Shown one piece after another: positions 12,982-59,740 of a stretch of DNA of 64,000 nucleotides. The stretch comes from Phlebiopsis flavidoalba (lineage: Eukaryota > Basidiomycota > Agaricomycetes > Polyporales > Phanerochaetaceae), in contig JAOCPU010000001.1 of NCBI GenBank assembly GCA_035772785.1, forward strand, positions 2,418,001-2,482,000, written 5' to 3'. Under the pieces are notes generated by a model. That model did not search any database, had not been told where the DNA came from, and worked only from the letters and a program-made list of their open reading frames with translations. Position numbers and translations under genes: made by a program. The stretch's first letter is position 1, and each line of letters begins with the position of its first letter.

Positions 12982-13100
12982 GCGCATGTTGGTTTCCCCG
13001 CCGAGACCTTCGGCGGGTACTTATCCCGAGGACCACGAAAAGGTCTGCGCCAGGACGTCCACGCTCGCCGAGCAAGCGCGGGCCATCCCTCCCTCGGGAG
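12982..13100 (-). ncRNA. HDV-like ribozyme candidate, copy A
   Basis: On the minus strand this RNA folds as a nested pseudoknot. P1 pairs UCCCGAG (13093-13099) with CUCGGGA (13024-13030). P2 pairs GCGCA (13046-13050) with UGCGC (12982-12986). P3 is GACC/GGUC with a UUUUCGU loop. P4 is CCCGCCGA/UCGGCGGG (12997-13017), a perfect 8-bp stem unlike any other copy. The joining segments AAGUA and GAAACCAAC are conserved. A GC-rich hairpin with CGCUUGC/GCGAGCG fills the P1-P2 joint. Directly upstream is a leader helix GGUGCCU/AGGCACC (13192-13198 with 13102-13108) whose loop holds a 54-base intron (13178-13125). Upstream again is a hairpin GACCGGG/CCCGGUC (13201-13236). It follows small gene A on the same strand. 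Confidence 0.75.
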
Positions 13101-13836
13101 GGGTGCCTTCGGCTGACGTGTTGCCTAAACGCGCGTCACGGTCAGCGCTCGTCGTGGTGAAGACGAGATGCCACTCACCACACCAGTGCGGAGGCACCGT
13201 TGACCGGGTAGAGGCGGGCCCTGCCCCTCCCGGTCATATTGTCAAGAGAAAGGAGAAGCGATGAGAGTAGTGTAGGGTCGAGGAGCCGCGGAGCCCCTGC
13301 GACGCGCCCGACGCGGCAACATCGGACGCGCCGCGAGGACTTCTGGGCGAGACGGCGTTCGGAGGGAAATGCTCTCGCGATGCACCCGACGCGGCAACAT
13401 CTGGCGCATCTCGAGAGCGTTCGTCTCCGAGCCGGATAGGGTAGTGGCGTTCGGAGTAGAGTCGCCTTGGGCTAGAGGGGACAGATAAATCAGTGGGGGT
13501 AGCCCCGAGCCCCACCGGGGGGGCTCGGAGTATTAGGTATTACGGGGGTACGGTAGTATGTGGGCATAGGAAGAGTGCATGAAAGATAAATAGAAATAAA
13601 ATGAAGGAATGTTTTTTGTGTTTTTATGTTTTGAACAGTTTTTTTCTCGGGGTTGTTTTTATGTTTTCGAGAGGAGAGAGAAGAAAGAAAGAAAGAGATG
13701 TGGGCTTCAGCTTTGCCATCGACGAGAGGACTTCGAACCCGGCTGCGCACTTCCGAGCTCTCCGTCGTCCCATCGACAGCGCGGCCTACGCCCACTTTTT
13801 TTGGGGGGCATAGCAAGCAACGAGAACGAGGATTGC

Positions 13837-14219
13837 TCACTTCTGCATCCACTGCGCACGCGTGCCCTTCCGCATCTTGCGAATCAGCTTGTTCCTCTCC
13901 ACCTTCTCAAAGCCCTCTACCCGGACCGGCATGTTGCGGAACTGCCTGCCCAACGTCGAGCGGGAGGATATTGGAGGACCTGATGAGTCCCTCGATGGCA
14001 AAGGGCACCCGCATCCTCCCGCGCGACGGGACTTCTTTGGGCTTGCGAGTGCTCGGAGGCGGGGGCAGGTCGCGACGCAGACTCCTGGAGGTGCTTCTCA
14101 AAGCCGCGGTAGCGGATCGAGGGGTCTCCCCTGGCGTCCGTGCTCGACAGGAGGGCGTAGCTGGGGGCGACGGGAGCGAACTCGACGATGCGGATGTGGG
14201 GCATGTGGTGGTCCGTCAT
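13837..14219 (-). CDS. Small ribozyme-tailed gene family, member A (H-like)
   Basis: Function unknown. The frame opens MTDHHMPHIRIVEFAPVAP and continues T-D-A-R-G-D-P-S-I-R-Y-R-G-F-E-K-H-L, which matches D-A-R-R-D-P-S-I-V-Y-G-S-F-E-R-L of member H. After frame changes it goes on through PPPSTRKPKEVPSRGRMRVP and ends R-V-E-G-F-E-K-V-E-R-N-K-L-I-R-K-M-R-K-G near 13860. A GTGAGC directly at the end (from about 13840) may be a splice donor instead of a stop, as in the other members, which splice to a short second exon. The protein is strongly basic at its C-terminus. Downstream (13.26-13.8 kb) lie an A-rich intron, a hairpin GAGCCC.../...GGGCTCG near 13500, and the ribozyme. This is the only family gene on the minus strand. 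Confidence 0.6.
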
Positions 14220-14284
14220 GTTGTGCGTGTGCGTGTGCGTGCGGGGGTAGTGGTGGTCACTGGAAGAGATGCAGCTGGCCGCGG

Positions 14285-14320
14285 TCCGAGTATTAAAGGT
14301 TTTCGGTCAGCCTCCTCGTG
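14285..14320 (-). promoter_or_regulatory. Promoter of small gene A
   Basis: On the minus strand GAGGCTGACC is followed about 10 bases later by TTTAATACT, a TATA-like box, some 75-80 bases before the ATG at 14219. Other members carry the same decamer core in the opposite orientation (GTCAGCCTC) before their TATA box. Confidence 0.45.
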
Positions 14321-14329
14321 CTCGGCTTG

Positions 14330-57823: not shown

Positions 57824-58001
57824 CCAGTTTTTATTCTGTCATCTAGGTTCGCCCAAGGACCTGGGTGGGGAAGGGCTCTCCCTTCACCGGGTCAGCGGTG
57901 TCGCCAGGCGCAGTGCGGTGAGTACCTTGCATCTTCCTCCCCGTCGCACTCAAGACTGACGAGACTGTGATATCCAGGCAACGTTCGTACTGGCGACACC
58001 C

Positions 58002-58137
58002 ATCCTGAGGGAGGGTCGGCCGCGTTACATCTTCGTATGCACATGCGGTCTTCCTAGCGCAGACCTTTTCGCGGTCCTCGGGATAAGTACTCGCGGAGCG
58101 TGTCCCACGGACCCTCCGCGAGGAAACCAACATGCGC
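58002..58137 (+). ncRNA. HDV-like ribozyme candidate, copy G
   Basis: P1 is AUCCUGAG (58002-58009) with CUCGGGAU (58077-58084). P2 is GCGCA (58057-58061) with UGCGC (58133-58137). P3 is GACC/GGUC with loop UUUUCGC. P4 is CUCGCGGAG/CUCCGCGAG (58090-58098 with 58114-58122) topped by GUCC/GGAC. The joint hairpin is GGCCGCGU/AUGCGGUC. The leader helix GGUGUCGCCAG (57898-57908) pairs perfectly with CUGGCGACACC (57990-58000), and a 60-base intron (57918-57977) sits in its loop. A further hairpin with GAAGGG/CCCUUC lies just upstream (57858-57893). Confidence 0.8.
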
Positions 58138-59081
58138 CGTTTGCTTTGTGTCTCCGGGTTGTTGTAGATAGCGTAGCGAGCCGTGGTAGTCAAAAAATCA
58201 TAGTACTTGCGCGATACATTGAATGAACGCTTGAGGCCATGACTTGGTTACGAGAGACAAAACAAGCTCGAACGCGACGACTTTTGAGTTAAAGCGGAGC
58301 TTCATCGTCGCGGATGTCACCGCGCCACGAAGGCTTTGGACTTTTCGGGGTTTCTAGCGTCACTACGGCCTTCCCTACGACCACTTAGCGAGATCCCATG
58401 GTCACTAATATGACATCTCAAAAAGGCTAGCTCACTTGCCCAACACTATCCTTGCTGCGTATGACTACGCATCGCTAGGAAAGTGGCTGGTGGTGTGTTG
58501 CTCACTCGGACAGCGCCGGACGGCTCGAGAATGTCAGATCGTGAAGGCTTACAACAACATTTCTAGTGCCGAAAGAACAGTGCTTTTTGTCACGATCTTC
58601 AACCTTACGCTAACCTTATGGCTTGGCCACCGGTGGCCACCGGCCTACTTGTGATCAACCCAGAACCCGTCAGGCCCGTGGTCAATCTGCTCTTCGGCCA
58701 CATCAAGGAGATCAAGACCACGGAAGCGATTTTGCCTGACTCTACTTCGGGTCTACGGAGTGTACGCTCTAGCCCTACAATGGTTTCAGCTAGTCTTCAG
58801 ATTTATGGCTGACCTTCTAGATGGCGATCGTCGTCCGCGCCAGCGCGCATGCCAGCCCGACGCTGGAGACGCGGGCGTGGGCCACGATGATCGAATCGGT
58901 TTACAGTTCATGCCGCAGTGTTCGCCGCCACTCGCCACTCGCCATCCGTCGCCCGCCACTCGTCACCCGCAGCCTATAAAGCCTCCTCGCTAGCATCTCG
59001 GTCGCCTCTACACACACACAAACACCGCTCATCTCGCCCCCACCTCCCTCTGTCACCATCCCTTCTGCTCTATTCCTCACC
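58138..59081. promoter_or_regulatory. Intergenic region and promoter of small gene H
   Basis: CGCAGCCTATAAAGCC (58969-58984) supplies a TATAAA box about 105 bases before the ATG at 59082, followed by a CACACAAACACC leader. The earlier part has short unrecognised frames only. Confidence 0.5.
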
Positions 59082-59538
59082 ATGCAGTACTACGCTACTC
59101 CCATCCACATGCTAGCTCCCGAAGCACCCCCGTTCATTCCGTTCTCCAACATGAAGGATCGCTCGGACTTGATCCCGCTCGAGGACGCCCGTCGGGATCC
59201 CAGCATCGTCTACGGCTCCTTCGAACGCCTCTCGCGCCAGGTCACCACCTCGCCTCTCACGCCCTCCCGCTCAGCCGGAGTCGTGCGCCTCGTCTCCGAT
59301 GGGGTCGCCCGTGTCGACTCCTCTCAAGGCGCCTGGTGAATCGTCTCTCCCCCAGTCCTCGAGTGACTTGGCTCTTGGTTCTGTCCAAGTCAGTCAGGGC
59401 CGTGACGAGCCGAAGCATCAGGGGAAAGGAAAGGCGCGTTCCGCTGGACGATCGCGCAGGAATGAACCAGTGCGTTGGCAACTGGCTCTAATCATCCTCT
59501 TCTCTCTGCTCTTCCTTGATTTATTTTTATTTTCTTGA
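59082..59538 (+). CDS. Small ribozyme-tailed gene family, member H
   Basis: It lacks the MPRF start: the frame opens MQYYATPIHMLAPEAPPFIP and reads S-D-L-I-P-L-E-D-A-R-R-D-P-S-I-V-Y-G-S-F-E-R-L (59163-59231), the core shared with member A. A frame change near 59300-59335 is needed to continue into P-L-K-A-P-G-E-S-S-L-P-Q-S-S and K-G-K-A-R-S-A-G-R-S-R-R-N-E-P. The frame then either runs on through WQLALIILFSLLFLDLFLFS, which would be a membrane anchor, to the TGA at 59536, or splices at GTGCGT (59470) to the AG at 59607-59608. The first option would give a tail-anchored protein, the second a short tail (A-L-G-E-G-L). By analogy with other members I favour splicing. Confidence 0.55.
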
Positions 59539-59609
59539 TATTTGATATGGGCTTCTGGAATTTCCTTAGGATCATCTTGTCTGAATAGCTAACCATTTTG
59601 TATTGCAGG

Positions 59610-59740
59610 CCCTGGGGGAGGGGTTGGTATTAGATATGTCCTCAGGGCACGTCTAATATCCACCCTGGCGCAGACCTTTTCGTGGTCCTCAGGATGAGTA
59701 CTCGTTGAAACACTTTGTTCACGAGGAAACCAACATGCGC
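59610..59740 (+). ncRNA. HDV-like ribozyme candidate, copy H (reduced 5' part)
   Basis: P2 is GCGCA (59668-59672) with UGCGC (59736-59740). P3 is GACC/GGUC with loop UUUUCGU. P4 is CUCGU-UGAA/UUCA-CGAG (59701-59726), again a private sequence. The joint hairpin is UAUUAGA/UCUAAUA (59628-59660). The P1 3' strand CUCAGGAU (59688-59695) is present, but its partner AUCCUGAG is missing; only CCUG (59611-59614) could pair partly with it. The segment after P1 reads GAGUA instead of AAGUA. There is no leader helix, and the splice acceptor at 59607-59608 lies right before this segment. Confidence 0.6.

What the first reader, a model, noticed from the sequence alone, without database searches (positions are those of the whole stretch)
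12982..59740. Nine copies of an HDV-like ribozyme candidate, eight of them behind members of one small gene family
Nine segments (12982-13100 minus, 16415-16570, 20825-20960 minus, 28963-29116, 30702-30845, 51010-51140, 56165-56303, 58002-58137, 59610-59740) share one order of strands: P1 5', a variable hairpin, P2 5', P3 hairpin, P1 3', AAGUA, variable P4 hairpin, GAAACCAACA, P2 3'. P1 and P2 therefore cross, a nested pseudoknot with the topology of the hepatitis delta ribozyme class. Details also agree with that class: P3 is ACC/GGU joined directly to P1 3', and its loop is UUUYCGY (antigenomic HDV has UCCUCGC). Two As after P1 could pair with two loop Us as P1.1 (copy H has GA, still pairable), and a C followed by N-R-A lies in the last joint, where the catalytic C sits in the class. 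Cleavage is predicted at the 5' end of P1, so it would separate the coding part from the ribozyme and any poly(A) tail. To my knowledge such ribozymes in the 3' untranslated region of a multicopy basidiomycete gene family are not described.
Basis: partly seen in the sequence, partly recalled or inferred. Interest (0 to 1): 0.95.

Follow-up and report, generated by a model that had tools for sequence, protein, structure and literature searches.

The report
Fungal HDV-type ribozymes at transcript ends
This fungus carries about seventy copies, nine of them here, of a small RNA that by its shape should cut itself, as the hepatitis delta virus ribozyme does; the fungal version of that class is already known, but why it sits where it does, at the downstream end of repeated units and often near splice-site-like sequence, is not explained.

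Summary
A covariance model from six of the nine segments finds exactly nine copies in the window (the three copies not used score E 9e-17 to 5e-9, next match 0.34). Pattern searches plus the model give 74 distinct copies in the genome at E<=0.025 (257 kb searched; a lower bound). All 23 pairs tested change on both sides with pairing kept, the crossing helix P2 included. The fold is the nested double pseudoknot of HDV ribozymes. It meets the stated marks of the fungal HDV variant of Li & Breaker 2017 (PMC5640933), two of which were shown to cleave: C-G at the cleavage site, loop E-like P4 base, one extra nucleotide between P2 and P3 (mostly G here, mostly C there). So: new member of a known kind. 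Not in the finding: upstream sequence shared by copies is mostly not kept in frame; among diverged window copies similarity runs into the ribozyme and stops after it; in seven window copies the predicted cut follows a covarying hairpin (2-3 nt in six) whose strands flank a 54-60 nt intron-like sequence. Most likely function: forming the 3' end of these transcripts. Catalysis and function were not tested. The host is Phanerochaete-like.

The parts
12982..13098 (-). ribozyme copy A; +1 (predicted cut before it) at 13098
13125..13178 (-). predicted 54-nt intron in helix P0 of copy A (5' strand about 13199-13179, following stretch with 3' strand 13124-13100)
   Evidence: GTGAGT...CTGAC...TAG
16417..16570 (+). 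ribozyme copy B; +1 at 16417; 4 extra nt before the P2 3' strand
16327..16385 (+). predicted 59-nt intron in helix P0 of copy B (5' strand about 16306-16326; following stretch 16386-16415); P0 in a shifted register
20826..20957 (-). ribozyme copy C; +1 at 20957; P2 GAUGCG/CGCAUC; belongs to a different upstream unit (with L035:4362, L036)
   Evidence: P2 strands read
28965..29116 (+). ribozyme copy D; +1 at 28965; bulge in P1, P2 3' strand displaced
28880..28939 (+). predicted 60-nt intron in helix P0 of copy D (5' strand about 28859-28879; following stretch 28940-28963)
30704..30845 (+). ribozyme copy E; +1 at 30704
30620..30678 (+). predicted 59-nt intron in helix P0 of copy E (5' strand about 30599-30619; following stretch 30679-30702); on its own this copy folds otherwise
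51012..51140 (+). ribozyme copy F; +1 at 51012
50930..50986 (+). predicted 57-nt intron in helix P0 of copy F (5' strand about 50909-50929; following stretch 50987-51010)
56167..56303 (+). ribozyme copy G; +1 near 56167; P1 3' strand 6 nt
56085..56141 (+). predicted 57-nt intron in helix P0 of copy G (5' strand about 56064-56084; following stretch 56142-56165)
58004..58137 (+). ribozyme copy H; +1 at 58004
57918..57977 (+). predicted 60-nt intron in helix P0 of copy H (5' strand about 57897-57917; following stretch 57978-58002)
59611..59740 (+). ribozyme copy I; +1 at 59611; branch-site-like CTAAC and TTGCAG end 2-3 nt upstream of the predicted cut
59082..59339 (+). ORF of 85 aa upstream of copy I, related to Phanerochaete proteins P0002-P0006; stretches resembling their later part lie in other frames (by eye)
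56994..57380 (+). ORF MPRFNF.. (128 aa) upstream of copy H; no Pfam match, none of 51 candidates in the protein search at E<=0.01; shares a 24-30 residue motif with the ORF of I and with P0006

Best explanation
The nine segments are self-cleaving ribozymes of the HDV class, of the fungal variant with a loop E-like P4 base, in a Phanerochaete-like fungus that carries at least about 74 such copies. Shown here by computation: the nested double pseudoknot with covariation in every tested pair, the conserved core, and, for the diverged window copies, the position at the downstream end of conserved sequence. Inferred from the class: the 2'-OH of the nucleotide before P1 attacks, giving a 2',3'-cyclic phosphate on the upstream RNA and a 5'-OH on the ribozyme. 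Inferred: in these units the cut forms the 3' end of the upstream RNA instead of, or before, polyadenylation; in the main window family that end would lie a few nt after a hairpin (P0) whose loop would be closed by splicing a 54-60 nt intron.
For: R1 finds 9 of 9 in the window, the three unused copies cleanly separated from noise. 23 of 23 pairs show changes on both sides; 94.0% of cells paired against 76.1% after shuffling; 353 double-change cells against 110. P2, which R1's structure does not contain, keeps pairing: own mean run 4.60 against 3.42 swapped, maximum 3.98 in 1000 (40 distinct strand pairs). P1: own best 6.92 of 7 against 6.19 for swapped strands, maximum 6.39 of 200 (49 copies). 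Core: L3 U 73 of 77, G 73 of 77, J4/2 C 75 of 77, J1/4 A 76 of 77, gaps counted as misses. Match to the fungal variant as described. Among diverged window members similarity runs through the ribozyme and ends with it, with 1500 nt downstream compared. P0: 8 of 10 copies examined have both splice-site-like ends at the same place; 7 of 18 consensus pairs with double changes; summed own duplex energies reached by 28 of 20000 permutations.
Against: No catalysis, transcript or 5' end was tested. A6 was fitted to R1, so its P1, P3 and P4 counts lean towards R1 (P2 does not). Related copies share ancestry, so counts are not independent events. P2 runs are 3 or less in 11 of 55 parsed copies. P0: only 2 of 8 5' strands (F, G) prefer their own partner over all others, and the best swapped pair (-36.9) beats every own pair; folded alone, E takes another hairpin and B a shifted one; D2 and L035:8240 lack the expected AG-GCAA; the covariation term is small, -1.11 of -24.76 kcal/mol. 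E and D share similarity downstream of the ribozyme with their near-duplicates, and for the roughly 300-nt loci only some 15-75 nt downstream were held. P0 was recognised in no other family that was read, so it cannot be general. B and D look partly decayed.
Confidence: 0.7

Rival explanations
1. Intronic or splice-linked ribozymes: the main role is competition with splicing. The ribozyme sits just after a 5' splice site or just after a 3' splice site, and cutting before splicing kills the spliced product while splicing first removes or spares it.
For: 5' splice-site-like GTRNGY or GTAAG in the last 30 nt upstream in at least one copy of 11 of 25 hand-made families (F1 with only 1 of 10 copies); family-averaged 0.35 against 0.14 in control windows; either splice-site type 0.44 against 0.16 (a narrower pattern gave 0.33 against 0.11). 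Copies of F5 and F11 and L068 read CAG-GTGAGT, GTGAGC or GTGCGT and then the ribozyme; in F2 units 3' and 5' splice-site-like sequence precedes successive ribozymes (by eye).
Against: 14 of 25 families have no such 5' site near by; families and patterns were drawn by eye from the data; the 3'-site pattern found 4 families and missed the F2 sites seen by eye; no splice junction was seen in RNA; host exons were not identified.
Confidence: 0.3
2. The ribozyme is the 3' end of dispersing non-autonomous elements (retroposon-like), kept because it frees the element's RNA from read-through transcripts, as 5' HDV ribozymes do for R2-type elements but at the other end.
For: About 74 copies in 25 hand-made families, often clustered; conserved upstream blocks without a kept reading frame; in diverged window copies similarity ends at the ribozyme.
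Against: Target-site duplications, tails and reverse transcriptase were not looked for. The upstream segment of the window family is found near-exactly only at C1:2.35-2.48 Mb, apart from weak matches elsewhere and a 50-nt stretch, 82% alike, before a contig-73 copy, which fits local duplication.
Confidence: 0.2
3. A conserved structured RNA with HDV-like topology that no longer cleaves, for example a binding platform.
For: No activity data; P1.1 does not simply follow HDV.
Against: The catalytic-type C and L3 U and G are kept in 73-75 of 77 rows, and two published fungal variants with the same marks cleave.
Confidence: 0.06

Closest known systems
Fungal HDV self-cleaving ribozyme variants (Li & Breaker 2017, PMC5640933)
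   Same: C-G pair at the cleavage site, loop E-like AGUA/GAA at the base of P4, one extra nucleotide between P2 and P3, nested double pseudoknot, many copies with varied gene surroundings (section 7 read).
   Different: Extra nucleotide is mostly G here (50 of 55) but most commonly C there; their alignment, figures and species table could not be read, so no model-to-model test was made and it is unknown whether Phanerochaete is among their 26 species.
HDV and HDV-like (drz) ribozymes, Rfam HDV families
   Same: Order P1, P2, P3, P1', P4, P2'; P3 joined to P1'; L3 U and G; C followed by N-R-A in the last joint (HDV details recalled).
   Different: No Rfam match in the window at gathering and only three unrelated ones at E<=10; C-G instead of R-Y at +1, loop E-like P4, hairpin in J1/2 in the longer copies, P1.1 unlike HDV or shifted.
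CPEB3 intronic HDV-like ribozyme
   Same: Ribozyme in an intron (start of the abstract of PMC10919898 seen in a listing); here only splice-site-like sequence near by.
   Different: Single mammalian gene; here many units, most upstream blocks not kept in frame.

Membership tests
HDV ribozyme class | crossing P1 and P2 (nested double pseudoknot) | tested here: met
   P1 and P2 covary
HDV ribozyme class | P3 hairpin joined directly to the P1 3' strand, L3 with U first and G late (recalled) | tested here: met
   3-bp P3 98.2% of cells paired; L3 U 73 and G 73 of 77
HDV ribozyme class | P1.1 of two Watson-Crick pairs between L3 and the nucleotides after P1 (recalled) | tested here: inconclusive
   HDV register: one A-U (73 of 77) plus C/C 44 or U/U 23; register of the finding: position 2 standard in 61 of 77, C/A in 12, position 1 U-A in 55 of 55 parsed (the parser asks for these letters)
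HDV ribozyme class | catalytic C in the P4-P2 joint followed by N-R-A (recalled) | tested here: met
   C 75, N (C70 U4 A2 G1), A 74, A 75 of 77
HDV ribozyme class | self-cleavage 5' of P1 | not testable with these tools
   needs RNA
HDV ribozyme class | match to an Rfam HDV model | tested here: not met
   0 matches at gathering, 3 unrelated at E<=10; this tests the library's models, not the fold
Fungal HDV variant (Li & Breaker 2017) | C-G pair at the cleavage site | tested here: met
   CG 72, UG 3, AU 1, other 1 of 77
Fungal HDV variant (Li & Breaker 2017) | P4 partly replaced by a loop E motif | tested here: met
   AGUA (A75 G74 U72 A72 of 77) facing GAA (G72 A75 A75 of 77); that these letters form a loop E is recalled, not tested
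Fungal HDV variant (Li & Breaker 2017) | one extra nucleotide, most commonly C, between P2 and P3 | tested here: met
   one nucleotide fits between them in the 55 parsed of 77 (the parser asks for one), G 50, C 3, A 2; its identity differs from the published majority
Fungal HDV variant (Li & Breaker 2017) | match to their alignment or covariance model | not testable with these tools

The most novel reading that the evidence does not exclude
A fungus has built a poly(A)-independent 3' end out of a spliceosomal intron and an HDV-type ribozyme: splicing closes a hairpin from two exon strands, the ribozyme cuts a few nt after it, and dozens of mostly noncoding transcripts end in such ribozyme-made ends, with splice-site placement setting when the cut happens.
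Probability: 0.2. Interest if true: 0.82.

Novelty: new member of a known kind. Interest (0 to 1): 0.5.

Why it matters
The biological job of HDV-type ribozymes in fungi is open: the 2017 report found cleavage but 'widely variable gene associations'. A genome with about 74 copies, some in families whose conserved part ends with the ribozyme, with splice-site-like sequence or a covarying hairpin a few nucleotides before the cut, gives concrete and quickly testable hypotheses (3'-end formation, competition with splicing). It also supplies a large alignment of a class that no Rfam model recognised in this window.

Tried and rejected
Rfam search of the window: no HDV match. The 9-bp P1: replaced by a 7-bp P1, since the two further pairs fail in most other copies. 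The finding's P1.1: I first rejected it and then withdrew that, because the counts support it about as well as the HDV register. A protein-coding explanation of the conserved upstream blocks: rejected for the 14 pairs compared (six families, 80-95% identical), where most gaps are not multiples of 3 (for example 22 of 24, 39 of 43, 52 of 57); against this, mismatches are uneven over the frames in E against its duplicate (22, 36, 47), and a decayed coding ancestry remains possible, since I has relatives in Phanerochaete and H shares a motif with them. Virus origin: one IMG/VR match to one pattern, inside a phage-like reading frame, read as chance. A P0 hairpin in other families: none recognised by eye in the copies printed; no systematic folding was done. 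The phosphoketolase-like gene in L043 ends well upstream and was taken as a neighbour. Window ORFs: ten examined, no Pfam family above its curated cut-off. Literature: nine searches gave one paper on fungal HDV variants, PMC5640933 (outline and abstract, sections 5, 7, 22, 26 and found passages seen); other papers were seen in listings only. Its main text has no occurrence of 'basidiomycete'; its species table was not read. No paper of the listings placed such ribozymes at the ends of a basidiomycete gene family, but the library holds open-licence papers only.
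Full report
CHECK. The nine segments were read and aligned. 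A covariance model from six (A, E, F, G, H, I; alignment, model) was run over the whole window without filters: it finds the nine and no other; D, B and C, which were not used, score E 9e-17, 2.6e-15 and 4.6e-9, and the tenth match is 0.34. Rfam has no match in the window at gathering and three unrelated ones at E<=10.

GENOME. The window lies on contig 1 of a 36.3-Mb assembly. A pattern for the P3-P1'-J1/4 stretch with up to 3 mismatches finds 50 places, its reversal 0; one for the J1/4-P4-J4/2 stretch finds 50 (two of them nested in others), its reversal 9. Sixty sources (the window and 59 fetched loci) were searched with R1: 78 matches at E<=1; three are weak (0.27, 0.6, 0.95) and one is the same place twice, leaving 74 distinct copies at E<=0.025, nine of them in the window (E-values for 257 kb, not the genome). 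Not every candidate place was fetched, so this is a lower bound.

STRUCTURE. On 77 distinct rows (the three weak ones included) the structure P1, P2, P3, P4 has 94.0% of 1637 cells paired (76.1% shuffled, 0 of 500 shuffles as high), double changes in 23 of 23 pairs and 353 cells (110 shuffled), and sliding the partner by 1-3 columns lowers the covariation score from 0.544 to 0.100 or less. The alignment was fitted to R1, which holds P1, P3 and P4 but not P2; P2 still shows 89.6% and 91.2% paired in its two parts with double changes in all five pairs. Independent of the model, a parser anchored on L3, J1/4 and J4/2 took 55 of 77 copies; P2 strands pair with their own partner better than with swapped ones (mean run 4.60 against 3.42, maximum 3.98 of 1000; 40 distinct pairs), with strand pairs such as GGCACG/CGUGCC, GGUGUG/CACACC and GACGCG/CGCGUC, though 11 of 55 have a run of 3 or less. 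For the 49 parsed copies with a 7-nt P1 3' strand (21 different ones), the best upstream partner is 7/7 in 45 and 6/7 in 4; swapped strands reach 6.19 on average against 6.92.

CORE AND MEMBERSHIP. The first pair of P1 is C-G in 72 of 77 rows. After P1 comes A-Y-R-AGUA; J4/2 is GAAACCAACA with C 75 of 77 and a more variable next base. AGUA facing GAA is the sequence of a loop E motif (recalled). Li and Breaker 2017 (PMC5640933, section 7) set the fungal HDV variants apart by three marks: C-G at the cleavage site, loop E in P4, one extra nucleotide between P2 and P3; they report 230 in 26 species and showed cleavage for two. The three marks are met here, with G rather than C as the usual extra nucleotide. 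I therefore file these as members of that variant, with the reservation that their alignment was not available. P1.1 is unsettled: L3 position 2 changes together with both following positions, as C/C or U/U with the second nucleotide after P1 (67 of 77) and as C-G, U-A or U-G with the third (61 of 77, with 12 C/A); shared ancestry may explain part of this.

SURROUNDINGS. By DNA, six window copies (B, D, E, F, G, H) share upstream sequence, for some pairs over several hundred bases. Between the diverged ones similarity runs through the ribozyme and ends with it, 1500 nt downstream having been compared; near-duplicates (E and D with the two copies of L034) are alike downstream too. The upstream blocks are not kept as reading frames in the pairs compared: in 14 of 14 pairs from six families most gaps are not multiples of three; the ORFs of D, F, G and H begin alike but run on in different frames and E has no such ORF (read). 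The 128-aa ORF of H has no Pfam match, and none of 51 candidates scored E<=0.01 in the protein search. The 85-aa ORF of I has five relatives, two named from Phanerochaete sordida and P. carnosa, 83% identical over 61% of it, so the host is Phanerochaete-like; in I stretches like their later part lie in other frames (by eye). H and I share 13 of 24 residues, and H and the P. carnosa protein 14 of 30 (pairwise E 2e-5 and 3e-5). Thus 'eight behind one gene family' becomes six by DNA plus I by a protein motif; A shares only the stretch next to the ribozyme, and C belongs to another unit.

HELIX P0. In A, B, D, E, F, G, H and one copy outside (L034:4520) the sequence before the ribozyme reads, in consensus, GGUGUCGCCGG..GUGCG, then GTGAGT with a CTGAY-like and a YAG end 54-81 nt on (54-60 in the window; G has TTGAC), then GCAAC..CCGGCGACACC and the ribozyme: 8 of 10 copies examined. 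The two flanking stretches can pair: 7 of 18 consensus pairs show changes on both sides, and the sum of own duplex energies was reached in 28 of 20000 permutations. Against it: only F and G prefer their own partner to all others, one swapped pair is better than every own pair, and alone E folds into another hairpin and B into a shifted one. The predicted cut lies 2 nt (D, E, F, G) or 3 nt (A, H) after the helix and further off in B (read). The conserved segment further upstream is found near-exactly only at C1:2.35-2.48 Mb; outside it there are three weak matches (two with 2 mismatches, one with 3) and an 82% alike 50-nt stretch before a contig-73 copy.

SPLICE SITES. In 25 hand-made families (73 of 77 copies), 5' splice-site-like GTRNGY or GTAAG in the last 30 nt before the ribozyme occurs in at least one copy of 11 families; family-averaged frequency 0.35 against 0.14 in control windows, and either splice-site type 0.44 against 0.16. 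In copy I a 3' splice-site-like TTGCAG ends 2-3 nt before the predicted cut. None of these sites has been seen used.

READING. That these RNAs have the HDV-type fold is close to certain on this evidence; that they cleave is likely from the published relatives; that the cut forms 3' ends of the upstream RNA is my preferred but untested inference, in competition with a role in splicing or in mobility.

Noticed in passing
L026:3994-4767, also L025, L027, L028, L030 (C1:200-269 kb): Two to four mostly minimal (about 75-nt) ribozymes within one unit, 166-292 bp apart, behind 3' or 5' splice-site-like sequence (by eye).
   Followed up: partly
genome-wide alignment A6: L3 position 2 covaries with the second (C/C or U/U) and the third (C-G or U-A) nucleotide after P1, so P1.1 of this variant is unsettled.
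   Followed up: partly
window 16212-16280, 28658-28726, 30469-30534, 50653-50721, 55873-55941, 57698-57767: A strongly conserved stretch CCCTGGYGGGCTCGGGGCCACC, then YTTAG-ACTGGCCGACCAGACC, some 200-360 nt before the ribozyme, with a possible hairpin and a 3' splice-site-like end.
   Followed up: partly
L054, L055, L056, L058, L069-L071 (contigs 25 and 52): Ribozymes followed within about 12-19 nt by a RTYGTAG and preceded by a sequence like CAAGACGCAGTTGAGTG.
   Followed up: no
window as a whole: Ten of the longer ORFs gave no Pfam family above its cut-off; the region looks gene-poor or lineage-specific.
   Followed up: no
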